Virus record (IMG/VR): IMGVR_UViG_3300025151_000048
Coordinates: 1 to 52,814 of that record
Direction: 5' to 3' (one strand)
Origin: a virus
DNA length: 52,814 nt
Shown: positions 20,803-52,814 of the stretch, piece by piece
How the letters are laid out: the number at the start of each line of letters is the position of its first letter
Numbering within the stretch: position 1 is the stretch's first letter
Notes under the pieces: model-generated
Seen by the model: the letters and a program-made list of their open reading frames with translations, nothing else
Told to the model about the DNA's origin: nothing
Databases searched by the model: none
Program-made: the position numbers and the translations under genes

Positions 20803-20805
20803 ATC

Positions 20806-21513: not shown

Positions 21514-21515
21514 AA

Positions 21516-21677
21516 TTAATAAGGGAATTTTTTATTTAAATATTCTTTACGCTTACCACAGCCGCAATCTTGGCCTGTAGCTTCGCTAATTTTTTCTACA
21601 ACTTTTTTTATTCCAGTTGCTTCTGTAATGGCCTCAACGGTATCGCCAAAACCACGATGTTTCATTTTAAAAGCCAT
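21516..21677 (-). CDS. Small Cys-Gly-Cys conserved phage protein
   Basis: A 53-codon gene: MAFKMKHRGFGDTVEAITEA, then TGIKKVVEKISEATGQDCGCGKRKEYLNKKFPY. The ending D-C-G-C-G-K-R-K-E-x-L-N-x-x-F-P-Y with the preceding GDTxE..TxATGIKKVV helix is a pattern I recognise from small genes of many marine phages, where it also sits among head/tail genes. Function is unknown; the CGC pair could bind metal or form a disulphide. It is preceded by A-rich sequence, not a Shine-Dalgarno, and abuts the connector gene. Confidence 0.85.
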   Translation of the reverse strand: MAFKMKHRGFGDTVEAITEATGIKKVVEKISEATGQDCGCGKRKEYLNKKFPY

Positions 21678-21698
21678 ATATAATATTTTTAGTAAATA

Positions 21699-21719
21699 CA
21701 GCCGCCATTAAGACGGCTG
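21699..21719 (-). other. Intergenic hairpin
   Basis: CAGCCG at 21699-21704 pairs perfectly with CGGCTG at 21714-21719 around a 9-base loop. It sits between the 257-residue gene and the 53-residue gene. There is no T-run on its leftward side, so it is not a good intrinsic terminator and may be a processing or stability hairpin. The loop side (CGTCTTAAT-GGCG on the minus strand) closely resembles that of the hairpin at 46047-46068. Confidence 0.5.
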
Positions 21720-21732
21720 CTTTACATTGTTT

Positions 21733-22506
21733 TTATTTAACTTTCTTTGCTAAAACCTTATAAACTTCCATTCCTTCATCTGTCTTAAACCATGCGGCTA
21801 AAGCGCTATAAGGATGTTCTTCATAAGGAACAACACATAATTTTTTACCATTTGGATAAGTAAATAATCTTTGATCCGCTGATAATTTTATATGATTTTG
21901 TTCCACAGCTTTTGCTCCAAAATTTCTAAGCTCAACATTTTCATCATTAGCTAATTGTAAAAATACACTTGGTCTTCTTCTAGCCATTAATAATATATCT
22001 CGCTTAATTTCTTTACTACTCATATCTAAGACTTCACTTCCAATTTCAGCTCTTAATATAGCTTCTGCATGTTCAATATCAATTGTTGTTGCCGCGTTCA
22101 TAGCTGCTAATTGGTATTCTAAATCTCCTAATTCGTCAGTAGCAATTTTTACTTCATCATATTCCTTAAATACATCATTTGCCATAGGGTGATAAACAGA
22201 CATTAATAATTGTAAACACTGATCTTCTTTCCCAACAAATAATTTACCATTTCTTAACACAATTCTACCTAAAGTAGATTCCCCCTTTTGTTCATCAACA
22301 AATGGAGTAGGTTGATTAGTGGCATATTTAAGTTCTCTATTGTAACCTTTTTCTGGGTCAAACCAGAGTAGAGGTCTTTTTGCAGTATGCATTGATGCAA
22401 TACTAAATACTAAAGGTTTATTTCTACCAGTTAAGGTATATAACCTATCTTTAATTTCCCAGCCTTTTGGCTTGGTCAATTGTCTTTCTTTTTTTGTTTT
22501 TTCCAT
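21733..22506 (-). CDS. Conserved head-module protein of unknown function
   Basis: 257 residues: a basic N-terminus (MEKTKKERQLTKPKGWEIKDR), then LYTLTGRNKPLVFSIAS, a mixed middle with helical LGDLEYQLAAMNAATTIDIEHAEAILRAEIG, and a C-terminal half with SSKEIKRDILLMARRRPSVFLQLANDENVELRNFGAKAVE. The C-terminal half looks like a compact helical module. It sits immediately after the capsid gene and its hairpin, in the place where many phages of this type have a conserved head gene without known function. I do not recognise a specific family. Confidence 0.7.
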   Translation of the reverse strand: MEKTKKERQLTKPKGWEIKDRLYTLTGRNKPLVFSIASMHTAKRPLLWFDPEKGYNRELKYATNQPTPFVDEQKGESTLGRIVLRNGKLFVGKEDQCLQLLMSVYHPMANDVFKEYDEVKIATDELGDLEYQLAAMNAATTIDIEHAEAILRAEIGSEVLDMSSKEIKRDILLMARRRPSVFLQLANDENVELRNFGAKAVEQNHIKLSADQRLFTYPNGKKLCVVPYEEHPYSALAAWFKTDEGMEVYKVLAKKVK

Positions 22507-22545
22507 GATATAATATAATTAAATAATTTTAAAAATAAGGTTACT

Positions 22546-22577
22546 GGGCGCCCCTTGAGCAAAGCTTTTTGGCGCCC
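22546..22577 (-). terminator. Strong hairpin after the capsid gene
   Basis: GGGCGCC at 22546-22552 and GGCGCCC at 22571-22577 form a perfect 7-bp all-GC stem in a region of about 30% GC. On the leftward side lies AGTAACCTTATTTTTAAAATT, giving a T-run about 10 bases downstream. It is 21 bases beyond the capsid stop. Its likely role is to end or attenuate the capsid transcript so that capsid mRNA exceeds that of downstream tail genes. Confidence 0.7.
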
Positions 22578-22598
22578 CTGTATCCTTAATAAAATGTA

Positions 22599-24071
22599 TT
22601 ATGAGTTCTTCAATAATACAAAGTTGTTAGCCGCTTGTACACATAAACATCTTTCTGATAAGAAATTTACTTGCATAACGTCTAAGTCAGAAGTATAAGC
22701 ACCACCAACAGAACCAGTAATCCAAGACTTCAATCTTCTATCGTCAGCTTCAGAAGCTCTATAACGAATATGTAAGAATGGTCTTGAAATATTTCTACCC
22801 ATATTTTGATCATATACAGTAGAAGTTCCAGCAGGTACCATTATACCTTCAACATCAGAAATTAATCCTCTTGTAGTTGAATCATTTAAGTATTTCCAAT
22901 CAGACTTATAGAAATCATAAGAACCTCTTCTAAATCCAGAGAAACCTAAATTAAGAGCCATATCTGCAGAGTTATCAAATACTCCATAAGAAGTACCATC
23001 AGCTCCGTAAGAATTTTGATTAGCTAACATTTTGTCAATAGCAAGCGCAGTGCTTCTATTTAAGAACATCATGTTCTCTTCAATAGCACCTTGCTTATCA
23101 AGCTCTTGTAAAATATTATCAAACTCATCAATACCACCGCCTGGGTAAGAGTTACCAAAGCTTTGATCGTTATATACTAATCCTCTATTTTCAACTGCAG
23201 AGAATAAACCTTCAGAACCTGCAGGAGCAGCTCCTAAATCAGTAGTTCCTGCAACACCAGAAGCAGCAACAGCTTTTTCAGCCTCAATCATTGCCATTTC
23301 TAATTTGTCTTCAAATCTAATTCTTGTTTCAGACTCAGATTTTAAGTACCATAAGTAACCAGAAGCACCAGCCTCAGTAGCTACTTCAACCCAGCCAATT
23401 TGAGCAGTATCAGATCCAGCGATCTTATACTTAGCTTTCATAATGATTGGTTTGTTAGAAAACTTCATGAATGGAGCATCAACTGATTGTTGCTCTTCGT
23501 TGTCAGTTCCTTTTCCATACTCAGAACCATAAATAAATAGTTTTACTGCACCTGCAGAAAAACCAGCGTCGTTTCCACCTGCTAATACAATACCAGCATA
23601 TGAATATGCAGATACGTCAAATGTTACACCACCACCAGCTTTACTTACTATTCTTGCTTTTACAGTTTTGTTTCCTTGAGCAATAACTACTGTATCACCA
23701 ATAGAATATAAAACTATTTGTTGTGCAGCAGTTAACCCTTCACCATCAGTATCAGTTACTAAAGTAACTCTATCGCTAGTTGCGTTAACGTTTGCAATTG
23801 TAGCATTATTAGATGCTACGTGGATTCTTCCTTGCTCAGACCAAACAACTTCATCAGAAGCCATTGGCATTTCAGCTCCAACCATTCTTAAAAATCCAGA
23901 AATAGTACGGTTACCGTATCTTTCTACTTCTTTTTCATAAACTTCTGGTAGGAATTGTCTAGCAAAGTTAAAATCATTATCGGCGATGTTCAGATAATTA
24001 TCATCAAACGCCAGTTTGTTGGGGCGCGGGGTTACGTGTAGTAACTCAGCACCAGTTCCAGCTAAAGCCAT
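22599..24071 (-). CDS. Major capsid protein
   Basis: 490 residues with the composition of a capsid protein (rich in Ala, Gly, Val, Asn, Ser) and codons more regular than those of its neighbours. The N-terminus is MALAGTGAELLHVTPRPNKL, followed by FARQFLPEVYEKEVERYGNRTISGFLRMVGAEMP and long helical and beta segments (LEMAMIEAEKAVAASGVAG; RPFLHIRYRASEADDRRLKSW). Length, position after portal and scaffold, and the strong hairpin behind it support the call. A crAss-like HK97-fold protein is my inference from gene order. The start is preceded by AATTAAAAATTAAAATT, the typical non-Shine-Dalgarno leader of Bacteroidota. Confidence 0.85.
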   Translation of the reverse strand: MALAGTGAELLHVTPRPNKLAFDDNYLNIADNDFNFARQFLPEVYEKEVERYGNRTISGFLRMVGAEMPMASDEVVWSEQGRIHVASNNATIANVNATSDRVTLVTDTDGEGLTAAQQIVLYSIGDTVVIAQGNKTVKARIVSKAGGGVTFDVSAYSYAGIVLAGGNDAGFSAGAVKLFIYGSEYGKGTDNEEQQSVDAPFMKFSNKPIIMKAKYKIAGSDTAQIGWVEVATEAGASGYLWYLKSESETRIRFEDKLEMAMIEAEKAVAASGVAGTTDLGAAPAGSEGLFSAVENRGLVYNDQSFGNSYPGGGIDEFDNILQELDKQGAIEENMMFLNRSTALAIDKMLANQNSYGADGTSYGVFDNSADMALNLGFSGFRRGSYDFYKSDWKYLNDSTTRGLISDVEGIMVPAGTSTVYDQNMGRNISRPFLHIRYRASEADDRRLKSWITGSVGGAYTSDLDVMQVNFLSERCLCVQAANNFVLLKNS

Positions 24072-25312: not shown

Positions 25313-27739
25313 TTACTGAGGTTCAAATGAACCCAAGTCAAATCCTCCACCCATTATATCATTACCAGATGACTCAAAATTTTTAGGCGGAGCGTCATTC
25401 TGTCTTTGAGCTATCAACTCACTTTGTTGAGTAGCTTGTATTTTTGTTCTATCGTCTTTACGATCTTCTTTATATTTTTCTTTTTGTTTTGCGCCTTCAG
25501 TTTCTTGGCCCTTTAGCTGCATATTAAAATCAAACTCTAAAGTCATAAGGTCTTTTTTAAGCAATGCCTCTTCTTTCATTTGCCTAGATTTTATTTCACC
25601 TTTTAATTTTTCTAATTCACTTTCTATTTGAATTAAAGCTTGTTTCTTTTCAACTTCAGCTTGTGCTGCAACTTGTTGAGCCTGCGCATTTGCTTGTGCT
25701 TGTGCTTGAATATTTCTTTCTTGCAGTTCTTGTTCTTTTTCTTGTTTTTTCTTACGTCTTACTTTTAAAAGTTGATTTGCAAGTTTTACATTTTTTATTT
25801 CTCTTAAATCAATAGCATCTTCTAAATCAATTAATCCACCAGCAACTGCTGCTTGTATATTATTTTCAAGCATTTGTTTTTGTTCTTCATCTGGAGCCAT
25901 TTCAATAAATATACCAAAATCATATAAATGTAGTTCAGACATTTCTTTTAATGTACCAACATTATGATTACCTATTTTATGAATAAATGCTTCTGCCGTA
26001 GGTGAATATTCTAATATATCTGATATTCTAAGTGATAAACCTTCTGCTAATTCTTGTGTAATAAATACACCGGCATTTAATATATGCCTTGTAGCTGTAT
26101 TAGAATTTGCTGCTGCTAATTTTTGTACACCTACCAATGCTCTTGAATCTGGTGTACTACCATCTCTAGCTTCATTTAATCCGGTCACATCTCTTATCAT
26201 TTGAAGATAATAATTGTAATTAGCTATAAGACTTTGCATTTTAACACCACCCGCATTATTTTGTATTTCTTGTATAGGTATTTTACCAGGGTTCATATCC
26301 CCATCGCTTGTAAAAGATCTACCAATAATACTACCAGTTTGGAAGAACATGTTTAATGCTTCTTGTGGGTTATAGTTTGTTCCATTACCTAAATCAATTT
26401 CAGCTAACCCATCAGCGTCTAAATAAATACCATCTGGCACCATTCTTGATAATACTTGCTGTAATTTTAAATGAGTTAATTGAATCATATCAGCAAAACC
26501 AGTAATACGTTTAACTAAAGAATCAATTTTACCCTTATACATTCTAGGGGCACAAATAGCGTAATTCATTTTAACCTTAGTGTAATCACTCTTAGGTCTC
26601 ATCATGTTTTTAGCTAGCTCCCATTTTAGTAAATGCTTTGTGCCTAAAATTAAAACTCCTTCATATAATACTTCTAATGATCTAGATATTTTACCAAATT
26701 CACCAGTCATTTCTTCAATTGGCGGGTCAAATGTATCATCTCTTAATATAATTTTTGAAGCACCAGTAGAAGTTTCTTTAACTTTATAAACCTCATTCAT
26801 ATAGGTTTTATAATTAAAATATAAAACTTGAATTTGATTTTTATCTTGATAATAAGCGGTATCATATCTATTATTTGAATAGCCGTTATTATGTAAGCTT
26901 TGACTTGAAATATCTTTTAAATCTTCTTCTGTTAAATGTGGAAATTCCTTTTTTAATTCGTTTATAGGTATCGTTTTTACTTCACCTACATAATAAACAT
27001 CACTGAAATATGGGTCTTCTGTATAAGAATAAACCATATTAGCAGGGTCTACATAGTCTACTTTTACGCCCTCAGCTTCTGTAAAAGTATTTTTAACAGC
27101 GCCAATACCTAATGTAGTTATATCGTATGTAATTCTTCTTTTAGTTAAATCATATCTATTACCTTCTAGTAATACATTAATAGCTTGCTCTTCAGCTAAT
27201 TCAACTTCTTGCTTATAACTAAGCTGCATATGAAGATCTAATTCTTCTTGACTATCAGGTAATTTTTCTGGTGGATTTTCAAATAAGTTTATACCAAAAG
27301 CCTCTTGCGCAAATTTATTAAGCTCCTGAGTTTCCATGTCTCTTAATATAGACTCCATATATTTAGTTCTTTTACTAACGCCATATGGGTCTTGGGAATA
27401 TGCCTTTACATCAAAAGTTCTTTCTGATATACCATTAACTACTATATCAACGAATTTAGGTATAATAGGAACGGGATTCCAATCTAAATTAAGATAAGAT
27501 AAATCACCATTAATAGATAATTCATCTTTATATTTTTGTATTGATTGTTCACCTCTTGCATATAGTCTTAATCTATTGAATTCTGCTTGGTTATTTCTAT
27601 ATCTTAAATTAGATCCATCTCTATCAAACCACTCATTCTCTATAGCTTTAGCAACCTTAAGCCCATACTCTGCGCTTTCTTTTTCTTGGTCACTTACTAC
27701 TTGACTAGGGAAAAATCCTTTTACAACTGACTCAGCCAT
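25313..27739 (-). CDS. Portal protein
   Basis: 808 residues. The first ~600 are mixed alpha/beta with the portal-like start EYGLKVAKAIENEWFDRDGSNLRYRNNQAEFNRLRLYARGEQ, the stem region (RNEARDGSTPDSRALVGVQK and nearby) and YNYYLQMIRDVTGLNEARDG. The last ~170 are a Gln/Lys/Glu coiled coil (KKQEKEQELQERNIQAQAQANAQAQQ) with a flexible end. Length and position between terminase and scaffold agree with crAss-like portals (about 800 residues). It forms the dodecameric DNA channel at the head vertex. Confidence comes from order, size and the TerL neighbour 1 base away. Confidence 0.85.
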   Translation of the reverse strand: MAESVVKGFFPSQVVSDQEKESAEYGLKVAKAIENEWFDRDGSNLRYRNNQAEFNRLRLYARGEQSIQKYKDELSINGDLSYLNLDWNPVPIIPKFVDIVVNGISERTFDVKAYSQDPYGVSKRTKYMESILRDMETQELNKFAQEAFGINLFENPPEKLPDSQEELDLHMQLSYKQEVELAEEQAINVLLEGNRYDLTKRRITYDITTLGIGAVKNTFTEAEGVKVDYVDPANMVYSYTEDPYFSDVYYVGEVKTIPINELKKEFPHLTEEDLKDISSQSLHNNGYSNNRYDTAYYQDKNQIQVLYFNYKTYMNEVYKVKETSTGASKIILRDDTFDPPIEEMTGEFGKISRSLEVLYEGVLILGTKHLLKWELAKNMMRPKSDYTKVKMNYAICAPRMYKGKIDSLVKRITGFADMIQLTHLKLQQVLSRMVPDGIYLDADGLAEIDLGNGTNYNPQEALNMFFQTGSIIGRSFTSDGDMNPGKIPIQEIQNNAGGVKMQSLIANYNYYLQMIRDVTGLNEARDGSTPDSRALVGVQKLAAANSNTATRHILNAGVFITQELAEGLSLRISDILEYSPTAEAFIHKIGNHNVGTLKEMSELHLYDFGIFIEMAPDEEQKQMLENNIQAAVAGGLIDLEDAIDLREIKNVKLANQLLKVRRKKKQEKEQELQERNIQAQAQANAQAQQVAAQAEVEKKQALIQIESELEKLKGEIKSRQMKEEALLKKDLMTLEFDFNMQLKGQETEGAKQKEKYKEDRKDDRTKIQATQQSELIAQRQNDAPPKNFESSGNDIMGGGFDLGSFEPQ

Positions 27740-46686: not shown

Positions 46687-47153
46687 ATCTATTAATATTA
46701 CATAAGTTTGTAGAAAGTTAAGAAAGTGACGCTAGCCTTATATTATATATATACTTATCCTATATATTATACGAAGTATAATATTATAAGGGCGTAAGGT
46801 GACACTAGGGTATTACTTATATACATTATATACCTAACGTCACATATATTGGGAGTTTGGGTTACTCTTCTCTATATACCCTATCCCCTTCAACACAAAG
46901 TCATTTCTTTTAACCCACCCCCCTTATCTTTATTTCTTTCCGTCCTCAACCTCAGTCGTTTCCGTGTATAGCATTATTACCTTGTCAACCTAGTTGTCTC
47001 TGTCTTCATCCTCGTCTTACACGGTTTATCCAGACATTCGACACTTTGTCATGACACAACGTCACACGATGTATAGCATTTCTACATTCACTAACTACAT
47101 TTCATTTGCGAATAGTAATTGATAATAATAATGTAACAAATAAATAATAAAGT
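46687..47153. promoter_or_regulatory. Divergent intergenic control region
   Basis: 467 bases without a gene between the leftward and rightward blocks, hence the promoters for both. Three 10-base sites match GTGACRYTAG: GTGACGCTAG (46726-46735), GTGACACTAG (46799-46808) and, inverted, CTAACGTCAC (46834-46843). A fourth partial inverted site, AACGTCAC, lies at 47058-47065 next to a perfect palindrome TGTCATGACA (47047-47056). A 9-bp inverted repeat with a GAA loop is at 46764-46784 and TGTATAGCATT is repeated at 46965 and 47070. The middle (about 46860-46960) is strongly pyrimidine-rich on the plus strand. A regulator-binding and possibly origin region is inferred. Confidence 0.6.
47107..47127 (+). 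promoter_or_regulatory. TGCGAA-N8-GATAATA motif, copy 1
   Basis: TGCGAA then 8 bases then GATAATA, 26 bases before the start at 47154. It is one of five copies with identical spacing on the plus strand and probably marks the promoter of the first early gene. Confidence 0.65.
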
Positions 47154-47405
47154 ATGATATTAGTAAATGTAAGTAAGAGAGGTACATTAAAATTCCAACT
47201 AAAAGATGGTAGACATGTATTGAGTTATAATTCTGGATATGTCAGAATGGATAGTGGTAGAAGTGATAGACTTTACCAACTAAATAAAGTAAGAAGAATT
47301 GAATTTCCAAATAGTACTTTTTATACATATGAAAGAGTTTTAATTCCTTGTCCTAAACAAAGATATAAATACCTATTAAACTTTGAAATGAGAAATTGTA
47401 AATAA
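47154..47405 (+). CDS. Small early protein, unknown
   Basis: 83 residues: MILVNVSKRGTLKFQLKDGRHVLSYNSGYVRMDSGRSDRLYQL, basic and beta-rich (NKVRRIEFPNSTFYTYERVLIPCPKQRYK). No domain is recognised. It is the first gene of the rightward block, 26 bases after the first bipartite motif copy. Early, perhaps host-takeover, role inferred from position. Confidence 0.7.
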   Translation: MILVNVSKRGTLKFQLKDGRHVLSYNSGYVRMDSGRSDRLYQLNKVRRIEFPNSTFYTYERVLIPCPKQRYKYLLNFEMRNCK

Positions 47406-47414
47406 TTTACATTT

Positions 47415-47467
47415 GTAAACATTGAGAGTTAGAGGTATACATATGTAAACAAATTAGTAAGTAAACA
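47415..47467. repeat. GTAAACA direct repeats
   Basis: GTAAACA occurs at 47415-47421, 47445-47451 and 47461-47467 in the gap between two early genes (spacing 30 and 16). The copies have AT-rich flanks (ATTTGTAAACA, ATATGTAAACA, AAGTAAACA). They may be binding sites for a regulator; function is not shown. Confidence 0.5.
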
Positions 47468-47491
47468 AAATTACTACTTTTACAAACCAAA

Positions 47492-47512
47492 TGCGAACTA
47501 AATAAGATAATA
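47492..47512 (+). promoter_or_regulatory. TGCGAA-N8-GATAATA motif, copy 2
   Basis: TGCGAA (47492-47497), 8 bases, then GATAATA (47506-47512), preceded by ACAAACCAAA. The start at 47543 is 30 bases downstream. Confidence 0.65.
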
Positions 47513-47542
47513 ATAATAAATAAGTAAATTAAATCTAAAGTT

Positions 47543-47848
47543 ATGAAAACTAAACAATTAAGTAAGACAATTGCTAAACTGTCTCAAAAAGAATTAGCAG
47601 AAATTTTCCCGCCAATTACAAGAAAAAACTTTGTTGTAAGAAAATCTTGGCTAGGTAGAAACCAGATTATAACATTTGTTAACAATAAAAACGTTAAAAT
47701 CACTTATAATCATGATGAAGTTTTAAAGGTAATGTTGCCAAAACTAAACATAATGCCTTGCTGGATTAAGCGTGGTTATTGGAGTCAATCAACTGACATG
47801 CCAACTAATGTTAGAGATATTGTACTTGACAGAGTAGAATTATCTTAA
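47543..47848 (+). CDS. Small early protein, unknown
   Basis: 101 residues: MKTKQLSKTIAKLSQKELAEIFPPITRKNFVVRKSWLGRNQIITFVNNK, then VKITYNHDEVLKVMLPKLNIMPCWIKRGYWSQSTDMPTNVRDIVLDRVELS. Helical N-terminus and a beta C-terminal half with Trp residues. No recognised family. It is followed within 10 bases by the first tRNA-like RNA, so the two may share a transcript. Confidence 0.7.
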   Translation: MKTKQLSKTIAKLSQKELAEIFPPITRKNFVVRKSWLGRNQIITFVNNKNVKITYNHDEVLKVMLPKLNIMPCWIKRGYWSQSTDMPTNVRDIVLDRVELS

Positions 47849-47854
47849 AACAAC

Positions 47855-47900
47855 TGATATGACGGTCTTTAGGTGAGTTCGATTCTCACCATATCAACTA
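47855..47900 (+). ncRNA. Minimal tRNA-like RNA without D- and anticodon arms
   Basis: A 7-bp perfect acceptor stem (TGATATG 47855-47861 with CATATCA 47890-47896) encloses an 11-base linker and a perfect 5-bp T-arm (GTGAG-TTCGATT-CTCAC, 47873-47889). A discriminator A and CTA follow. There is no room for D- or anticodon arms. TTCGATT is a standard T-loop. It could be a decayed tRNA, but perfect pairing argues for selection. Confidence 0.65.
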
Positions 47901-47919
47901 ACAATTAAAATTAAATAAA

Positions 47920-48054
47920 ATGAAAAGAAAATTTCAACACTATGTGATTACTACATTTTTAGTGTCACTGGCAACACTGGCTTTATCAGGAATTATAATG
48001 ATTTCTTATCACCTAATGTTTAACAACCCAACAATAACTTTTGGAGGATGGTAA
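47920..48054 (+). CDS. Small membrane protein
   Basis: A 44-codon gene: MKRKFQHYVITTFLVSLATL, then ALSGIIMISYHLMFNNPTITFGGW. One hydrophobic segment (about 9-30) follows a basic start, so a single-pass inner-membrane protein is likely. Upstream is TTAAATAAAATG, an A-rich leader. It overlaps the next gene by 7 bases. Function unknown; small early membrane proteins of phages sometimes act in superinfection exclusion. Confidence 0.7.
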   Translation: MKRKFQHYVITTFLVSLATLALSGIIMISYHLMFNNPTITFGGW

Positions 48055-48320
48055 GAAATGAATATAATGGGTGGACAAATTATGCCACGTGGAGAGTAAA
48101 TTTAGAGATATTTGATAATTACCAATGGGACGATGAAGAAATTAAGAATCTAACGGTTGATTATCTTGAAGAAATGATAGAAAACTACGTATTTGACCAT
48201 CATGGTGATATGGGATTAATGGAAAGTTATGCAAGAGCATTTTTAAGTGAAGTAAATTATTACGAAATAAAACAAGAAATATTAGAAGATTATGAAAATG
48301 AAAAAAAATATAATAGATGA
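48048..48320 (+). CDS. Small conserved protein with GWTNYATW motif
   Basis: 90 residues: MVRNEYNGWTNYATWRVNLEIFDNYQWDDEEIKNL, acidic and helical to the end. The N-x-G-W-T-N-Y-x-T-W-x-V-N-L pattern occurs in small proteins of many phages and plasmids (I know it as a DUF7249-type family) without established function. Its start overlaps the membrane protein stop by 7 bases. Confidence concerns the gene, not a role. Confidence 0.8.
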   Translation: MVRNEYNGWTNYATWRVNLEIFDNYQWDDEEIKNLTVDYLEEMIENYVFDHHGDMGLMESYARAFLSEVNYYEIKQEILEDYENEKKYNR

Positions 48321-48612
48321 AATGGTGTTTGACACCAAAAATGACAGATGGATATTCTTAAGTGACCTAGATTCTGGTGAATTTGAATATAATAATAAAT
48401 TGGTGAAAGTATTTACTACTGATAGAGGATATAAATTTTTCCAAACTAATTGGGGAAATACTCAAATATCTTCAATATCTTGGCAAAATTGTAAAGATAT
48501 TATTAAAGATAGAACAGAAAATGCAGAACATTATGCAAAATTAGAACAATTAAGTTCAGATACTCTTGCAGAAATGTATAAAAATAACCATAATAACTGG
48601 ACAGGAGATTAA
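48292..48612 (+). CDS. Small early protein, unknown
   Basis: 106 residues: MKMKKNIIDEMVFDTKNDRWIFLSDLDSGEFEYNNKLVKVFTTDRG, then YKFFQTNWGNTQISSISWQNCKDIIKDRTENAEHYAKL. Beta-rich first half and helical second half. It overlaps the preceding gene by 29 bases; an alternative ATG at 48298 is two codons later. No family recognised. Confidence 0.7.
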   Translation: MKMKKNIIDEMVFDTKNDRWIFLSDLDSGEFEYNNKLVKVFTTDRGYKFFQTNWGNTQISSISWQNCKDIIKDRTENAEHYAKLEQLSSDTLAEMYKNNHNNWTGD

Positions 48613-48615
48613 AAT

Positions 48616-48741
48616 ATGAAAAGAGATTTATATAGATTTGCAAAAGCAAGAAAATACGGTGAAAGAATTATATTGTGGGAAGACGAATGGTATAGAAAAT
48701 ACAATAAAAATTACAATGTAAGTGCGAAACTAAATGGATAA
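48616..48741 (+). CDS. Very small basic protein
   Basis: A 41-codon gene: MKRDLYRFAKARKYGERIIL, then WEDEWYRKYNKNYNVSAKLNG. Highly basic with aromatic residues. It starts 3 bases after the previous stop. Its last codons lie within the motif copy at 48723-48743. Function unknown; could be a short nucleic-acid-binding peptide. Confidence 0.6.
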   Translation: MKRDLYRFAKARKYGERIILWEDEWYRKYNKNYNVSAKLNG

Positions 48742-48743
48742 TA
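48723..48743 (+). promoter_or_regulatory. TGCGAA-N8-GATAATA motif, copy 3
   Basis: TGCGAA, 8 bases (including CTAAAT), then GATAATA, 7 bases before the start at 48751 and overlapping the end of the 41-residue gene. Confidence 0.65.
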
Positions 48744-48750
48744 TAATTGT

Positions 48751-48939
48751 ATGAGATGTAAATGTAAAAATATAATTCCACAAGGTAGATTGCGATTAGG
48801 TTATAAAACTTGTGTAAATTGTTCAACAGTAGAAATGCATAGTTATATACCTATAATAGCAAATAAACAAATACAAGAATTGCAAATAGTTTCGCCATCA
48901 CTATCTGCGTTAGTACATAAATCATGGCGTAGAAAATAG
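48751..48939 (+). CDS. DksA/TraR-type zinc-ribbon protein
   Basis: 62 residues: M-R-C-K-C-K-N-I-I-P-Q-G-R-L-R-L-G-Y-K-T-C-V-N-C-S. C3, C5, C21 and C24 with I-P-x-x-R-L-x-x-G between them resemble the zinc-ribbon end of DksA/TraR proteins, which bind RNA polymerase through the secondary channel. The long coiled coil of DksA is missing, so this would be a minimal zinc-ribbon version. A role in redirecting host transcription is inferred. Confidence 0.6.
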   Translation: MRCKCKNIIPQGRLRLGYKTCVNCSTVEMHSYIPIIANKQIQELQIVSPSLSALVHKSWRRK

Positions 48940-48943
48940 AGAA

Positions 48944-49060
48944 ATGATACAATTAATATTAAGTGACATTAGGTTTTTAATACTACAGTATAAAGACGGT
49001 AAAATAGAAATAAAAGAATTATTAAATAAATTAGAAGAATTAATAAATGAATACAATTAA
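48944..49060 (+). CDS. Very small helical protein
   Basis: A 38-codon gene: MIQLILSDIRFLILQYKDGK followed by a Glu/Lys/Leu helix ending LINEYN. A basic/hydrophobic first half could associate with membrane. It starts 4 bases after the previous stop and overlaps the next start by 14 bases, which supports translation. Function unknown. Confidence 0.55.
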   Translation: MIQLILSDIRFLILQYKDGKIEIKELLNKLEELINEYN

Positions 49061-49247
49061 ATTTACAAGTAAAACAACATTAAAATTAAATGGTGTTGAG
49101 TATGGTGGATATGAATTAGGTGAAATACCACCAAGTTTTGGATACAAAGAAAAATTTGATGGCGTGAATGAACACGGTGAAGACAAATTTAAATATGGTA
49201 TTAACCAATGGTTTAATTATAAAGGATTAACATGGGTAATAAAGTAA
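49047..49247 (+). CDS. Small early protein, unknown
   Basis: 66 residues: MNTIKFTSKTTLKLNGVEYGGYELGEIPPSFGYKEKFDGV, then KFKYGINQWFNYKGLTWVIK. Beta-rich with several Gly/Tyr. Overlaps both neighbours slightly. No family recognised. Confidence 0.65.
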   Translation: MNTIKFTSKTTLKLNGVEYGGYELGEIPPSFGYKEKFDGVNEHGEDKFKYGINQWFNYKGLTWVIK

Positions 49248-49453
49248 TAAAAGTAATACAATATGTCTTAGTAGGTGGAATATGTTTTATATTAGGTATA
49301 TTTTATACATTTTATAAAATTGACCAAAGAGTATGGGACGAAACCATTAATAAAGCATGGGACATAGAAAATAGAGCAATGAATTTTCCAGAGAAATCTT
49401 GTTATAATTGGCAAGATATTGAACTAATAATCTTTGGTGAAATACAAGAATAA
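49232..49453 (+). CDS. Small membrane-anchored protein
   Basis: 73 residues: a basic start (MGNKVIKVI), a clear transmembrane segment (QYVLVGGICFILGIFYTFY, about 10-28), then an acidic soluble tail with IDQRVWDETINKAWDIENRAM. It probably faces the cytoplasm or periplasm as a single-pass protein. Its stop codon's last base is also the first base of the tRNA-like RNA's acceptor stem at 49453. Confidence 0.7.
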   Translation: MGNKVIKVIQYVLVGGICFILGIFYTFYKIDQRVWDETINKAWDIENRAMNFPEKSCYNWQDIELIIFGEIQE

Positions 49454-49721
49454 GCTAGACGAGTAGGTTAATAGGTATGATTAAAGGCGTAATCCTGACG
49501 AAGGTGAGAAAAACGGCTCGATGATTACACATAACTGAATTGCTAGCACTTGACCGGAAGCGCAATAGCGACTCGAGGTTGGATAACTAGGTATGGCGTG
49601 GAGAAGGCATAAAGAGTATAAGTCTAGGTAGCGTGCACGCAAGTGCAAACGGGAGCATCTCAGCTGATTATCCCACTAACTACTGACGAGTAAAGAGGTT
49701 CGATTCCTCTTCTAGTTGCTA
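49453..49721 (+). ncRNA. tRNA-like RNA with large structured insert
   Basis: Acceptor AGCTAGA (49453-49459) pairs with TCTAGTT (49711-49717; one G-U). The T-arm is AGAGG-TTCGATT-CCTCT (49694-49710). Discriminator G and CTA follow. A second stem, AGTAGGTTA (49462-49470) with TAACTACT (49678-49685) and one bulged base, closes a ~207-base insert. The insert shows group I intron-like elements: GACTCGA (from 49570) as a possible R element, AAAGAGTATAAGTCT (49611-49625) as S, a TATG...CATA hairpin, and a TGCAC-GCAA-GTGCA hairpin (49634-49647) like P9. An intron-containing tRNA or a tmRNA-like RNA are alternatives. No D-arm is visible. Confidence 0.55.
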
Positions 49722-49734
49722 AAATTAATAAATT

Positions 49735-49929
49735 ATGAGTGTGACAAAAGAAATAGATAGAATTGCAGGTGAAATAGCCAAAGATTTAGAACCAAAACTA
49801 TTTGAAATGGTATCATGGGGAATAGATAATACTGATTTAGATGTAGTAGAAGGTGATGAGTTTATAGAGCTAGTGACACACATTAGCAATCAAGTATTAA
49901 TTAAATTAAAAAATAATATAAATGAGTGA
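49735..49929 (+). CDS. Small acidic early protein
   Basis: 64 residues: MSVTKEIDRIAGEIAKDLEPKLFEMVSWGIDNTDLDVVEGDEFIELVTHISNQVLIKL and a short tail. Predicted helical, acidic. It follows the tRNA-like RNA by 13 bases and overlaps the next gene by 8 bases. No family recognised. Confidence 0.65.
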   Translation: MSVTKEIDRIAGEIAKDLEPKLFEMVSWGIDNTDLDVVEGDEFIELVTHISNQVLIKLKNNINE

Positions 49930-50173
49930 TAGCGTAAAAAAGTATTATGAAATGAAGGAAGACGGTGAGTTTAACAACGTAGAATGGGCAAGATACATAT
50001 GGGTATTAGATTTCGAACGAGGTAAAGTATACAGATATGATATAAGAAGCAGTTGGAACCATGGTGAATGGAATCCAGATTCTGAAAAATGTGAAGAATT
50101 TTTAATAAAAATGGGTCACTCAATAGGTAATATAGAATGGATGGTATGTGCTGAAAGCGAAGTATCATACTAA
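49922..50173 (+). CDS. Small Trp-rich early protein
   Basis: 83 residues: MSDSVKKYYEMKEDGEFNNVEWARYIWVLDFERGKVYRYDIRSSW, then HGEWNPDSEKCEEFLIKMGHSIGNIEWMVCAESEVSY. Acidic, aromatic-rich. The start overlaps the previous stop by 8 bases. Function unknown. Confidence 0.7.
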   Translation: MSDSVKKYYEMKEDGEFNNVEWARYIWVLDFERGKVYRYDIRSSWNHGEWNPDSEKCEEFLIKMGHSIGNIEWMVCAESEVSY

Positions 50174-50185
50174 TTACAAAGCAAA

Positions 50186-50206
50186 TGCGAATAAAAAACG
50201 ATAATA
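50186..50206 (+). promoter_or_regulatory. TGCGAA-N8-GATAATA motif, copy 4
   Basis: TGCGAA (50186-50191), 8 bases, then GATAATA (50200-50206), preceded by ACAAAGCAAA. The ATG at 50185 lies inside this motif, so the ATG at 50218 is the more credible start of the next gene. Confidence 0.65.
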
Positions 50207-50217
50207 AAATAAAACAA

Positions 50218-50448
50218 ATGCAAACATTATATCAAAGACTAAAACCAAATCTTAAAGTTAAACTTAAATACAATTCAATTAAGTACAAAGAAGGTCCAAG
50301 ACAAGTAATTGCAGAGTTACATAGATTTCATAACTACTCTGAATTAACTGTTGGAACTGTTAAAGACTTGGTATTATATTCAGATATAGATGACAGAAGA
50401 TGGGACTCTATTGACTGGAGATATGGTGATAAATTATTTAACAATTAA
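50218..50448 (+). CDS. Small basic early protein
   Basis: 76 residues from the ATG at 50218: MQTLYQRLKPNLKVKLKYNSIKYKEGPRQ, then VIAELHRFHNYSELTVGTVKDLVLYSDIDDRRWDSIDWRYGDKLFNN. The earlier ATG at 50185 would add MRIKNDNKIKQ, but it lies in the conserved motif, so I prefer 50218, 11 bases downstream of it. Basic first half, acidic second half. Not recognised. Confidence 0.65.
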   Translation: MQTLYQRLKPNLKVKLKYNSIKYKEGPRQVIAELHRFHNYSELTVGTVKDLVLYSDIDDRRWDSIDWRYGDKLFNN

Positions 50449-50459
50449 AATAAAGGATT

Positions 50460-50912
50460 ATGAGTAAAAAATTATTAACAGAAGACCTTATTCTCAAAAA
50501 ATTATTTGATAAAGGCATTAGAGAGCCGGGAACTTTCGAAATTGATGATGTATTAGATGACTTATTAAGTCATTATGGTGCAGAAATAAGAGATGACTGG
50601 GGCGGTTCATTTAATATATGGTTTTATACTGAATCAACTACTGATGGGTATGAAGTATATGTTGCAACAGAAAATGAAACTAGCCCATATATTGGCGAAG
50701 ATGTATATTATTATGAAAATGATTGGCTTGAAAAATTACCTAATGCAATTATTGATGGTTTATCTATCCATTTAGATAATTATCATAGAGATGATTATGC
50801 ATTTGAAGATGCAATAAATGAGGTATATGATATATATTGGAATGATATGAAAGAAGATGTTGAATCTGAGTTAATCGAAGAAGGTTATAGTTGGCCATCT
50901 AAAGATGAATAA
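50460..50912 (+). CDS. Acidic early protein, unknown
   Basis: 150 residues, strongly acidic: MSKKLLTEDLILKKLFDKGIREPGTFEIDDVLDDLLSHYGAEIRDD, ATENETSPYIGEDVYYYENDWLEKLPNAIIDGLSIHLDNYHRDDYAFEDAINEVYDIYWNDMKEDVE. DNA-mimic acidic proteins are common among early phage genes, but nothing beyond charge supports that here. It ends 5 bases before the third tRNA-like RNA. Confidence 0.65.
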   Translation: MSKKLLTEDLILKKLFDKGIREPGTFEIDDVLDDLLSHYGAEIRDDWGGSFNIWFYTESTTDGYEVYVATENETSPYIGEDVYYYENDWLEKLPNAIIDGLSIHLDNYHRDDYAFEDAINEVYDIYWNDMKEDVESELIEEGYSWPSKDE

Positions 50913-50917
50913 ACAAA

Positions 50918-51003
50918 GGGCGTGAAATGGTTAGACATTGGCAATTACTTTTAATCGAAGGAAAAGCAATGTAACGCAGGTTCGATTCCTGCCACGTCCA
51001 CTA
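50918..51003 (+). ncRNA. tRNA-like RNA with extended hairpin
   Basis: Acceptor GGGCGTG (50918-50924) pairs with CACGTCC (50993-50999; one G-U), and the T-arm is GCAGG-TTCGATT-CCTGC (50976-50992). Between them a hairpin has ACATTG/CAATGT (50935-50940, 50967-50972) and CTTTT/AAAAG (50948-50952, 50962-50966) stems and loop AATCGAAGG. No D-arm is visible and no standard anticodon stem-loop is formed. Discriminator A and CTA follow. Confidence 0.55.
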
Positions 51004-51425
51004 AATGGAGTGTAAGTCGTTCCCGAAAACCGGCCCACCGGAAATCGGGGCATCTCCAAAGAGTAGTAATCGATTTAAAACTAATGCGCTACTCAGGGTT
51101 GGTGACTCCCAAGACAAATCACATTAGGGACTAAGTGCCGATATGTGAATCACCTGTAATAAGAAGAGACTGCTGGGGTTTCTTCCCCCTAAAATATAAT
51201 GGGTTAAAACACGAAGGACGGAATAATATAGTGGCTACTAAGCGGATACGCACAAAACCACAAATTTCTCAACTTGGTAAACGTGAGTCAGGTCAATGAG
51301 TTAGATATTAGACCTCAGAAAGCGTGGGTACGTGCACAGTGCCACCCAAAAATACTATAGGTGTGGGCACGCGTGCGGTGCTGTTACTTGACCTGAGAAA
51401 AGACGTACAAGCACACCTAAAATAT
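51004..51425 (+). ncRNA. Structured non-coding RNA region
   Basis: About 420 bases without a reading frame of note, GC-richer than the flanks. Supported stems include a symmetric hairpin CCCGA-AAA-CCGG-CCCA-CCGG-AAA-TCGGG (51022-51049) closed by TGGAG/CTCCA (51006-51010, 51054-51058); GAGTAG/CTACTC (51061-51066, 51089-51094); a perfect 9-bp helix TCAGGTCAA/TTGACCTGA (51288-51296, 51388-51396); and AGGTGTG/CACACCT (51359-51365, 51412-51418), which crosses the previous helix to form a pseudoknot. Two related GTGGG-x-ACG...GTGC segments (51324-51342 and 51363-51381) repeat. It could be a single ornate phage RNA of the kind found beside phage tRNAs (GOLLD, ROOL); family not shown. Confidence 0.5.
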
Positions 51426-51499
51426 GGCGGGATGGAGCAGATGGTCAGCTCGCGAGCCTCATAAGCTCGAGGTCGTAGGTTCGAATCCTACTCCCGCAC
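51426..51499 (+). tRNA. tRNA-Met (CAT anticodon)
   Basis: A full cloverleaf: acceptor GGCGGGA with TCCCGCA, D-arm GAGC-AGATGGTCA-GCTC, anticodon arm CGAGC-CTCATAA-GCTCG (anticodon CAT), T-arm GTAGG-TTCGAAT-CCTAC. The first pair is G1:A72, a mismatch like that of initiator tRNAs, but the three G-C pairs typical of initiator anticodon stems are missing. Discriminator C is followed by CTAA, not CCA, as in the three tRNA-like RNAs. It could also be a CAT-anticodon Ile tRNA if position 34 is modified. Confidence 0.85.
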
Positions 51500-51512
51500 C
51501 TAAATTAAAATT

Positions 51513-51596
51513 ATGACAACAACTGAAGAAGCACTATTAGTATTAGGTATATTCTTAGCAATATGTTTATTACTAGTGTCTTTAATTAAAGATTAA
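51513..51596 (+). CDS. Tiny membrane peptide
   Basis: 27 codons: MTTTEEALLVLGIFLAICLL followed by LVSLIKD. A single transmembrane stretch covers most of it. It starts 13 bases after the tRNA, with an A-rich leader (AATTAAAATT). Function unknown. Confidence 0.5.
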   Translation: MTTTEEALLVLGIFLAICLLLVSLIKD

Positions 51597-51598
51597 AT

Positions 51599-51841
51599 AT
51601 GGGAACACCAACAAGAATGTTCTCTTTTTGGAGAGACACAAATGATTTACACAAACCTATTACTGAAGAATGTGAAATAGTATCAATACCGTTTAGAAGT
51701 AATTTAGGACCAGAGCTAATTACTAAAGTAATGAAATCTGGCGAATATGAAATAATTGGTATACAAGAAGATGGTACTTGGACTATAGAAATTATAGCAA
51801 GAAAAATAGATAAACCAATATACGAATTTAAAGAAGATTAA
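51599..51841 (+). CDS. Small early protein, unknown
   Basis: 80 residues: MGTPTRMFSFWRDTNDLHKPITEECEIVSIPFRSNLGPELITKVMKSGEYEIIGIQEDGTWTIEIIARK and an acidic end. Beta-rich. It has the MGT start shared with the next gene and lies 2 bases after the peptide gene. Not recognised. Confidence 0.65.
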   Translation: MGTPTRMFSFWRDTNDLHKPITEECEIVSIPFRSNLGPELITKVMKSGEYEIIGIQEDGTWTIEIIARKIDKPIYEFKED

Positions 51842-51842
51842 T

Positions 51843-52286
51843 ATGGGAACAAGAAGTTTAACTAGAGTAATACCTAGACAAGAAGGTCTTAGTTTTAATC
51901 AAGGCCATGAAAACGGGGAGTTAGCTTATGTAAATATGTATCGTCACTTTGATGGTTATCCAGAAGGTCACGGCTTAGACTTAGCTGAATTCTTAAAAGA
52001 TATGAAAATAATAAATGGTATAACCGATGAAGCAGAATTAAATACTCATGCTAATGGAGCAGGGTGTCTTGCGGCACAAATGGTAAAATATTTTAAAGAA
52101 GGTCCGGGATATATTAATTTATATCCTACCGATAATGATTACGGGTGGATGGATTATGTTTATACCATTTTTCCTAAAGAAAATGAGCCTTGCTTTATAT
52201 CTATTTATAGTACGGGTAAAAGAGAATGTATATTTGTGGGTACACCTGAACAATTATTAAAAAAATACAAACCAAATACGGATTAA
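51843..52286 (+). CDS. Conserved phage protein with MGTRS start
   Basis: 147 residues: MGTRSLTRVIPRQEGLSFNQGHENGELAYVNMYRHFDGYPEGHG, LDLAEFLKDMK, then EKNEPCFISIYSTGK-like beta sequence. The M-G-T-R-S-L...Y-R-x-F-D-G-Y-P-x-G-H-G...L-A-x-F-L pattern occurs in proteins from many phages and bacteria, with no established function. The start and the HFDGYPEGHG core support a compact folded domain. Confidence 0.8.
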   Translation: MGTRSLTRVIPRQEGLSFNQGHENGELAYVNMYRHFDGYPEGHGLDLAEFLKDMKIINGITDEAELNTHANGAGCLAAQMVKYFKEGPGYINLYPTDNDYGWMDYVYTIFPKENEPCFISIYSTGKRECIFVGTPEQLLKKYKPNTD

Positions 52287-52297
52287 ATACGATAATA
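52277..52297 (+). promoter_or_regulatory. TGCGAA-N8-GATAATA motif, copy 5 (variant)
   Basis: TACGGA, 8 bases, then GATAATA (52291-52297), only 3 bases before the start at 52301. The first box has two changes against the other copies (TACGGA versus TGCGAA), while the spacing and the second box are kept. Confidence 0.6.
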
Positions 52298-52300
52298 TAA

Positions 52301-52534
52301 ATGACTAAAAAAGAAATTGAAAAAATATCACAACGAGTAGCAGAACTTATACTTAATCAACTACATGAAGGATTATTGCTAGATATTCAGCCTGATGAAG
52401 AAGAAGAATTACTAGCTGAATTAGCAAAATGTATGACTTTAATGGATAAATATTTAAAAGCAGAAGATTACGAAAGATGTGATTTATTACAGAAAAAAAT
52501 TAAAGCAATAGAATTAAAATTAAAAAACCTATGA
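52301..52534 (+). CDS. Small coiled-coil, UVR-like protein
   Basis: 77 residues: MTKKEIEKISQRVAELILNQLHEGLLLDIQPDEEEELLAEL, then MDKYLKAEDYERCDLLQKKIKAIELKLKNL. The final ~30 residues resemble the UVR motif of UvrB/UvrC (E-D-Y-E-x-C/A-x-x-L-x-x-K-I-x-x-x-E), used for protein contacts. It overlaps the ligase start by 4 bases (ATGA). A partner role for the ligase/replication module is inferred. Confidence 0.6.
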   Translation: MTKKEIEKISQRVAELILNQLHEGLLLDIQPDEEEELLAELAKCMTLMDKYLKAEDYERCDLLQKKIKAIELKLKNL

Positions 52535-52814
52535 TGAAACCAATGTTAGCACACAAGTTTGATGATAGTCGAGTTGACTGGTCATTACCTGTGTATATAC
52601 AACCAAAACTAGATGGCGTTCGCTGTCTATTTACTAAAGATGGTGCGTATTCTCGTACCGGTAAAGAATTTATGAATGTATCTCACTTGAGAACTACATT
52701 GCTGCCGTTTTTTAGGCAACACCCAGACGTTGTGCTTGACGGTGAATTATATAATCATGAACTTAAACATGATTTTGAAAAGATTATTTCATTAGTTCGT
52801 AAGCAAAAGCCTAC
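52531..52814 (+). CDS. ATP-dependent DNA ligase, 3' end outside
   Basis: Starts ATG-ATG at 52531/52534; 94 full codons are visible. Motif I is Q-P-K-L-D-G-V-R-C with the adenylated Lys at 26, then S-R-T-G-K-E-F (motif IIIa-like), and V-L-D-G-E-L-Y-N-H (motif III). It would seal nicks during phage DNA replication, recombination or repair. It overlaps the preceding gene by 4 bases (ATGA), indicating coupling, and marks the start of a replication/repair module beyond the window. Confidence 0.9.
   Translation, partial: MMKPMLAHKFDDSRVDWSLPVYIQPKLDGVRCLFTKDGAYSRTGKEFMNVSHLRTTLLPFFRQHPDVVLDGELYNHELKHDFEKIISLVRKQKP

What the first reader, a model, noticed from the sequence alone, without database searches (positions are those of the whole stretch)
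47855..51003. Family of tRNA-like RNAs lacking a D-arm and carrying inserts of very different size
Three elements (47855, 49453, 50918) each keep a 7-bp acceptor stem and a perfect 5-bp T-arm with loop TTCGATT, yet no D-arm or usual anticodon arm is recognisable. The material between acceptor and T-stem grows from 11 to 51 to 234 nt. Perfect pairing in each argues against decay. They could be tRNA mimics (decoys for tRNA-cutting defence nucleases, 3' end protectors, or RNA-processing tags) or parts of a tmRNA-like system.
Basis: partly seen in the sequence, partly recalled or inferred. Interest (0 to 1): 0.85.

Follow-up and report, generated by a model that had tools for sequence, protein, structure and literature searches.

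The report
Phage tRNA-like RNAs carrying swappable modules
A lineage of viruses of (probably) flavobacteria carries small RNA genes that keep only the tRNA-like top of tmRNA, a bacterial ribosome-rescue RNA, and mount on it interchangeable, nested RNA building blocks that also occur on other RNA scaffolds nearby; nobody seems to have described this.

Summary
E3 (50918-51000) matches Rfam tmRNA end to end with the mRNA part deleted (E 2.4e-14; G3·U70, A73). It belongs to a family of 84 distinct RNAs in related phage contigs: constant tRNA-like domain (TLD), hypervariable insert closed by a strongly covarying helix. E1 (47855-47897) is an "empty" relative: acceptor stem, GGT linker, T-arm, no insert. 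The "234-nt" element is two RNAs: hairpin scaffold S2 (49454-49547) and a separate TLD, S3 (49585-49718, 102-nt insert). The inserts are modular: about half of the TLD cargos recur outside TLDs (41 of 84 by BLAST; shuffled cargos 0-3), on other scaffolds, with different but complementary flanking stems, sometimes nested. The lineage shares a portal with flavobacterial phages (mostly 54-82% within, 43-54% to named records). tRNA decay and canonical tRNA/tmRNA are excluded. TLD-only tmRNA is known from mycobacteriophage DS6A, and a similar molecule inhibits trans-translation; the modular cargo is, to my knowledge, undescribed. Best reading: stable RNAs with a tmRNA-derived processing/binding head carrying exchangeable binding modules, probably host-takeover decoys. 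Anatomy is well supported; transcription and function are untested.

The parts
50918..51000 (+). E3: tmRNA-derived tRNA-like domain (type A). Acceptor 50918-50924/50993-50999 with G3·U70, A73 at 51000; D-loop-like AAATGGTTAG 50925-50934; P2 ACATTG 50935-50940 / CAATGT 50967-50972; cargo 50941-50966; T-arm 50976-50992
   Evidence: cmscan RF00023 1-374/374, 41.9 bits, E 2.4e-14 (gathering 47), match 50918-51003; family of 84 distinct elements; covariation
47855..47897 (+). E1: 'empty' type-C element, acceptor 47855-47861/47890-47896, linker ACGGTCTTTAG, T-arm 47873-47889, discriminator A 47897; no G3·U70, no insert
   Evidence: 15 counterparts with 9-15-nt linkers, mostly ATGGTTARY; alignment A2; pairing against swapped halves 94% vs 68% (biased because pairing was used to select)
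49454..49547 (+). S2: hairpin scaffold without T-arm, outer stem GCTAG/CTAGC, constant ACGAGTAGGTTAATAGG ... CACATAACTGAATTG, carrying cargo module M1 (GATTAAAGGCG..CGGCTCGATGA, about 49479-49524)
   Evidence: 21 loci; covariation 97.5% vs 87.1% shuffled, with compensatory changes in outer and inner stems; folds alone at -24.1 kcal/mol, z -2.26
49585..49718 (+). S3: second T-armed tRNA-like element, acceptor AACTAGG 49585-49591 / TCTAGTT 49711-49717 (one G·U), 102-nt insert, T-arm 49694-49710, discriminator G 49718
   Evidence: homologues L112, L059, L103; further loci with AACTAG..CTAGTT and TACYGACGGGTA; centroid fold keeps the acceptor, but the energy is not exceptional (z -0.80)
51001..51425 (+). 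Non-coding stretch between E3 and tRNA-Met, part of the ncRNA island; contains module M16 at about 51360-51417 (GTGTGGGCACG..AGCACACC) and a motif GGGTTAAAACACGAAGGACGG seen downstream of TLDs in L006, L039, L041, L084
   Evidence: no Rfam match; whole-stretch MFE not exceptional (z -1.04)
51426..51499 (+). Canonical tRNA-Met(CAT), the only ordinary tRNA in the window; also near the TLD in several relatives
48751..48939 (+). 62-aa zinc-ribbon-like protein gene (CxC..CxxC..WRRK), in relatives directly upstream of ncRNA islands
   Evidence: 46 distinct sequences; first ncRNA-scaffold motif at a median of 88 nt downstream, next ORF at a median of 265 nt; alignment A4; no significant Pfam or PDB match
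47491..47512 (+). Promoter-like motif WTNCGRA-N8-GATAATA upstream of E1 (others in the window at 47106, 50185, 52276, all + strand)
   Evidence: 4 found, 0 in 100 shuffles; in 853 kb of relatives 86 sites at gap 8 and none at gaps 4-7 or 9-13

Best explanation
E1, S3 and E3 are phage RNA genes built on the 'top half' of a tRNA: acceptor stem, T-arm and a D-loop remnant. In E3's class this is the tRNA-like domain of tmRNA, whose mRNA-like domain and pseudoknots have been replaced by a stem (P2) carrying interchangeable RNA modules. Proposed working: (1) the element is transcribed with the early genes around it; (2) RNase P, 3' processing and CCA addition trim it to a stable RNA, and type A may also be alanylated and bound by SmpB/EF-Tu through G3·U70 and the D/T elbow; (3) the cargo stem displays conserved internal-loop or cap modules that bind particular targets, most likely host or defence proteins or ligands, so the RNA works as a decoy or scaffold during takeover; (4) recombination swaps and nests modules between scaffolds (TLD, S2, S3, stand-alone hairpins). 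The anatomy, tmRNA kinship of type A, P2 covariation and module sharing are shown. Steps 1-3 are inferred.
For: tmRNA kinship: E3 matches RF00023 over 1-374/374 at E 2.4e-14 with the middle deleted; 49 of 50 related whole records also match at E <= 0.1. Structure: P2 helix score 5.53 against 3.53±0.13 with 3' halves swapped; all five P2 pairs show double changes, 94.1% of cells paired against 32-55% when slid. G3·U70 and A73 in 84/84: G3 was free in the 3'-pattern scan and U70 free in the 5'-pattern scan; G-U at pair 3 is the AlaRS determinant conserved in tmRNA (PMC3985003). Modularity: 41 of 84 cargos match DNA outside TLD contexts (first pass 43, with shuffled controls 0-3 and reversed 1). 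The same modules sit on different, complementary stems: M6 6.14 vs 3.47±0.70, M1 4.09 vs 2.03±0.43. Modules nest, e.g. L040/L096 and L043. S2 carries M1, M2, M4, M5, M10, M13. Because scaffolds without a T-arm carry the same modules, the module looks like a functional unit and the TLD one of several carriers.
Against: No transcript, binding or phenotype data. No module matched a known RNA family in 12 relatives scanned, and one module (M6) is absent from 100 genomes of the family of a flavobacterial MAG, so no target can be named and mimicry of host sequence is unsupported for M6. E1 and S3 lack G3·U70, so alanylation cannot be general. Energy z-scores of single elements are modest (E3 -2.55, S2 -2.26, S3 -0.80). 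Nearly all type-A members come from one phage lineage, so sharing could reflect recent recombination without function of the cargo.
Confidence: 0.45

Rival explanations
1. tmRNA/SmpB decoy: the TLD itself is the active part. It titrates SmpB (and perhaps AlaRS/EF-Tu) and blocks host trans-translation; the cargo is tolerated filler or a tuning element.
For: [quoted passage not shown] PMC11915505, both citing Mao 2009, which I could not read). Type A keeps A8, the D-loop GG, ACGC and the T-loop. TLD-only tmRNAs occur in at least three other viral contig groups: L038/L095 66.7 bits, L003/L088 56.6 bits, L019 38.8 bits.
Against: Does not explain cargo modules kept base for base and shared with scaffolds lacking a T-arm, nor several TLD types per genome, nor the loss of G3·U70 in E1 and S3 (though charging may not be needed). 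The D-loop is shorter than in the tmRNA consensus (UGGUUAGAC vs UGGAUUCGAC).
Confidence: 0.27
2. tRNA punctuation / mRNA end formation: the elements mark gene borders. RNase P and RNase Z cut at them, giving defined mRNA ends; cargo is neutral or a local regulatory element.
For: They lie between genes on the gene strand; in many cases an ATG follows within 2-25 nt of the discriminator, or an ORF stop precedes within 0-10 nt. In five cases a promoter motif starts 13-14 nt after the element. 'Empty' type C would be the minimal signal.
Against: A cutting signal needs no conserved modules. Many type-A elements follow other ncRNAs rather than an ORF. Short gene spacing is normal in these phages, so closeness to ATG is weak evidence.
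Confidence: 0.15
3. DNA-level feature: mobile hairpins or recombination sites (MITE-, REP- or attC-like) that insert into tRNA-like genes, with no RNA function.
For: Cassettes are mobile, nested and shared between loci.
Against: Modules are two-strand internal loops whose outer stems differ but stay complementary, and whose interiors are replaced independently; simple insertion does not give this. P2, S2 stems and T-loops show RNA-type constraint. No target-site duplications were looked for.
Confidence: 0.08
4. Degenerate or canonical tRNA/tmRNA genes (decay, split tRNA, intron-bearing tRNA, ordinary mini-tmRNA that tags).
For: tRNA-like ends; full or permuted tmRNAs occur in distant relatives (Cellulophaga phage phi38:1, Maribacter phage Panino).
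Against: ARAGORN finds no tRNA or tmRNA; no intron family match; type-A inserts of 36-117 nt are too small for tag frame plus pseudoknots; conservation and covariation exclude decay.
Confidence: 0.05

Closest known systems
TLD-only ('standard, no CDS') tmRNA, e.g. mycobacteriophage DS6A; Mallomonadaceae plastids (PMC4131195, PMC11915505)
   Same: tmRNA acceptor/T-arm/D-loop half with the tag-coding domain gone; phage-encoded (DS6A)
   Different: Here an exchangeable modular cargo replaces the lost domain; 84 distinct sequences against 9 'standard, no CDS' forms in the 2025 tmRNA database; accompanied by TLDs without the alanine identity pair and by T-arm-less scaffolds with the same modules
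Jakobid/oomycete mitochondrial tmRNA (RF02544; Jacob 2004 as cited in PMC11915505)
   Same: mRNA-like region lost, TLD kept
   Different: Mitochondrial and mostly permuted; no cargo modules reported
Phage-encoded full tmRNA (Cellulophaga phi38:1 here, Calle in PMC8776804) and two-piece tmRNA (methylophage Melnitz, PMC9004378)
   Same: tmRNA genes in phages; phi38:1 and Calle are flavobacterial phages with a distantly related portal
   Different: Those have the full mRNA-like domain
mRNA 3' tRNA-like structures and tRNA punctuation (from general knowledge, not tested)
   Same: Acceptor + T-arm used outside decoding
   Different: No evidence here that the element ends a genome or a messenger

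Membership tests
tmRNA (RF00023) | tRNA-like domain: acceptor with G3·U70, A73, T-arm, D-loop without D-stem | tested here: met
   E3 matches 1-374/374, E 2.4e-14, 41.9 bits, below the curated 47-bit cut-off; G3·U70/A73 84/84
tmRNA (RF00023) | mRNA-like domain with resume codon, tag frame and pseudoknots | tested here: not met
   Insert of 51 nt in E3, 36-117 nt in the family; deleted in the alignment; so not filed as tmRNA
TLD-only (CDS-less) tmRNA | tmRNA TLD with little else | tested here: met
   Met for E3 and type A apart from the added cargo; E1 and S3 have no tmRNA match
TLD-only (CDS-less) tmRNA | inhibits endogenous trans-translation | not testable with these tools
   Published for a similar molecule (PMC4131195); not tested for these
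Canonical tRNA | cloverleaf with D-arm and anticodon arm | tested here: not met
   ARAGORN and Rfam RF00005 find only tRNA-Met 51426
Group I/II intron-containing tRNA | intron family match | tested here: not met
   No Rfam intron match at E up to 10 in 46700-52814
SmpB-binding RNA | SmpB contact with D/T elbow | not testable with these tools
   D-loop GG and T-loop conserved, D-loop shortened

The most novel reading that the evidence does not exclude
A phage RNA system with domain-like architecture: several carrier scaffolds (tmRNA-derived TLD, S2, S3, stand-alone hairpins) display a shared, swappable and nestable repertoire of at least a dozen RNA modules, each an aptamer-like binder of a different host or defence target: an RNA counterpart of modular anti-defence islands.
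Probability: 0.3. Interest if true: 0.95.

Novelty: new variant of a known kind. Interest (0 to 1): 0.8.

Why it matters
CDS-less tmRNA was known from one phage and a few organelles. Here it is a recurrent, rapidly diversifying gene class in a widespread phage lineage, which makes the question 'do phages target ribosome rescue with tmRNA mimics?' directly testable. The modular cargo shows structured RNA evolving by swapping and nesting of internal-loop modules, something normally seen for protein domains, and offers a ready collection of conserved RNA motifs with unknown ligands.

Tried and rejected
Direct protein relatives of the 150-aa ORF before E3 in viral contigs: none confirmed. E. coli Drexlerviridae hits to E3 (ESCO41, UALMA_PCEc3) are a tRNA-Ile-like gene with a very long D-region, not TLDs. 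GGGCGTGAAATGGNTAG in bacterial and archaeal genomes: 41 hits, only two true elements (L164, L166), both on short contigs of one MAG labelled Aliivibrio, probably stray phage contigs. M6 in 100 genomes of the family of a flavobacterial MAG: none. Rfam on 12 relatives: only tRNAs. First promoter pattern with loose spacing: no match; the spacing is exactly 8. DS6A was not in the collection under the accession I tried. Zinc-ribbon protein: no significant Pfam or PDB hit. Single-sequence folding alone gave weak z-scores and was not relied on. PADLOC on neighbouring ORFs: one marginal Cas5f hit (E 0.005), not believed. Covariation of acceptor and T-arm in type C is biased because pairing was used to find the elements.
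Full report
WHAT IS THERE. The window is a 52.8-kb phage contig, recorded as a virus record. Its portal is 54% identical to that of an uncultured podovirus, 46% to Maribacter phage Panino and 43% to Flavobacterium 'elemo' phages, and it has a phage GroEL. The late genes run on the minus strand; the right end (47.1-52.8 kb) holds small early-type genes on the plus strand, among them the reported elements. Acceptor + T-arm combinations with TTCGATT occur three times; 60 dinucleotide shuffles average 0.017. Only one ordinary tRNA (Met, 51426) is found by ARAGORN and Rfam.

E3 IS THE tRNA-LIKE DOMAIN OF tmRNA. With permissive thresholds, 50918-51003 matches RF00023 from its first to its last position with nearly the whole mRNA-like domain deleted (41.9 bits, E 2.4e-14; curated cut-off 47). 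It has G3·U70 and A73, the D-loop GG, and the ACGC before the T-arm. In tmRNA the third acceptor pair is completely conserved as G-U and is the alanyl-tRNA synthetase determinant (PMC3985003).

A FAMILY WITH A CONSTANT HEAD AND VARIABLE CARGO. A scan of viral contigs with the E3 3' end returned 93 stretches, most with the 5' half GGGCGTGAAATGGTTAG and no ARAGORN gene. In all I collected 84 distinct type-A elements with inserts up to 125 nt. Selection used acceptor and T-arm but not P2, so P2 is a fair test: its helix score is 5.53 against 3.53±0.13 when 3' halves are swapped. On 42 elements with distinct P2 ends, 94.1% of cells are paired, all five P2 pairs change on both sides, and sliding the partner drops pairing to 32-55%. 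G3·U70 is 84/84. U70 was fixed in the first search pattern and G3 in the second, but each was free in the other. Of 50 carrier records searched whole, 49 match RF00023 at E <= 0.1 and 41 encode the window's portal, mostly at 54-82% identity; the nine without are fragments under 32 kb apart from two (G025, a different phage, and G043). So type A is mainly a trait of one phage lineage. TLD-only tmRNAs also occur in at least three other viral contig groups: L038/L095 (66.7 bits), L003/L088 (56.6 bits) and L019 (38.8 bits).

E1 AND E2. E1 belongs to an insert-free class C: acceptor, 9-15-nt linker with GGT (usually ATGGTTARY), T-arm. Several counterparts share the setting 'about 76-aa ORF, element, short ORF'. 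Their pairing exceeds swapped halves (94% vs 68±4%), but pairing was part of their selection. The 5' part is scaffold S2 (49454-49547), found in 21 loci with constant ACGAGTAGCTTAATTAGG / CACATAAGTGAATAG, a closing stem that covaries (GCTAG/CTAGC, GCCAG/CTGGC, GTCAG/CTGAC, GTTAG/CTAAC) and an inner C-G to G-C exchange. The 3' part is a T-armed element S3 (49585-49718) with a 102-nt insert and homologues such as L112 with 53 nt.

THE CARGO IS MODULAR. At least a dozen motifs were listed by eye. M6 (CAAAGTTCGAAAGTACACTA, identical over 20 nt) caps different stems: GCGAA/TTCGC in a TLD, GTTAA/TTAAC in stand-alone hairpins, GCTAG/CTAGC, GCTGA/TCAGC. M1 (GATTAAAGGCG..CGGCTCGATGA) sits in TLDs (L082, L092), in S2 (window, L025, L079, L190), in stand-alone hairpins (L028, L057) and in a further scaffold (L043, L049, L052). 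Flanking stems are complementary beyond chance when flanks are swapped among contexts of one module: M6 6.14 vs 3.47±0.70, M1 4.09 vs 2.03±0.43; M2, M3 and M4 point the same way weakly, M11 and M16 are uninformative. Modules nest: L040/L096 holds the outer module of L028 with the inner module of L031/L122 inside; L043 holds another module inside M1. Relatives carry whole ncRNA islands with further repeated scaffolds; the window's 51001-51425 looks like part of one.

SURROUNDINGS. A promoter-like motif WTNCGRA-N8-GATAATA occurs four times in the window, all on the plus strand (0 in shuffles); in 853 kb of relatives there are 86 at spacing 8 and none at other spacings tested. E1 lies about 360 nt and E3 about 730 nt downstream of such sites, in the right orientation. 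A 62-aa zinc-ribbon-like protein (window 48751-48939) is present in 46 distinct versions, usually just upstream of the ncRNA island: first scaffold motif at a median of 88 nt, next ORF at a median of 265 nt. It may be an RNA partner or a transcription factor; it matched nothing significant.

HOW IT MAY WORK. Shown: anatomy, tmRNA kinship of type A, RNA-level constraint, module exchange. Inferred: transcription, processing by tRNA enzymes, alanylation of type A, and target binding by modules. Because scaffolds without a T-arm carry the same modules, I take the modules as a functional payload and the TLD as one carrier that gives defined, stable ends and possibly SmpB/EF-Tu binding. The strongest rival is that the TLD itself is an inhibitor of ribosome rescue: mycobacteriophage DS6A has a TLD-only tmRNA, and a similar molecule strongly inhibits tmRNA, perhaps by titrating SmpB (PMC4131195; PMC11915505; both cite Mao 2009, which I could not read). 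The two readings are compatible. Punctuation of mRNAs is possible but does not explain the cargo.

NOVELTY. CDS-less tmRNA is a known kind: 9 standard-form sequences in the 2025 tmRNA database, which lists 79 phage tmRNAs in all (PMC11915505). The cargo-bearing family is a new variant. The shared, nested module repertoire has no counterpart that I found in nine literature searches of an open-access library that lacks most subscription journals, so absence there is weak evidence.

Noticed in passing
window 48751-48939: Conserved 62-aa zinc-ribbon-like protein (CxC..CxxC..WRRK), 46 distinct versions, usually immediately upstream of the ncRNA island; the cysteine spacing recalls DksA/TraR zinc fingers but no profile matched.
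   Followed up: partly
window 47106, 47491, 50185, 52276 (+): Promoter-like motif WTNCGRA-N8-GATAATA with rigid 8-nt spacing, 86 copies in 853 kb of related loci.
   Followed up: partly
window 51001-51425: Further non-coding stretch between E3 and tRNA-Met with module M16 and a motif (GGGTTAAAACACGAAGGACGG) recurring downstream of TLDs in relatives.
   Followed up: partly
L126 about 27560-27700 (Maribacter phage Panino): 3' tmRNA end (GGACGGGAGTTCGAAACTCCCCACCTCC) precedes a 5' tmRNA end (GGGGGTGATTGGATTTGACAGC): looks like a permuted two-piece tmRNA, while the record annotates an ordinary tmRNA overlapping tRNA-Thr.
   Followed up: no
L131 26803-27164 (-) (Cellulophaga phage phi38:1): Full-length tmRNA gene (87.6 bits), not annotated in the record.
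   Followed up: no
L095 1501-1572; L088 9931-10018; L019 5947-6026: TLD-only tmRNAs in viral contigs outside the main lineage, two of them above the Rfam cut-off.
   Followed up: partly
L202, L205, L206, L207, L209: Module M6 on a hairpin GGCGTG..CACGCC that resembles the type-A acceptor but has lost the T-arm.
   Followed up: no
L127 1442-1545, L128 1442-1543: Drexlerviridae tRNA-Ile-like gene with a roughly 45-nt D-region next to tRNA-Arg.
   Followed up: no
L129 1423-1537: Vibrio phage PhiImVa-1 tRNA annotated as a TTA suppressor with about 40 extra nt.
   Followed up: no
contig of L026 (G014), 20783-23114 (-): Portal match broken by dozens of stop codons in several overlapping pieces; sequence quality or decay not examined.
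   Followed up: no
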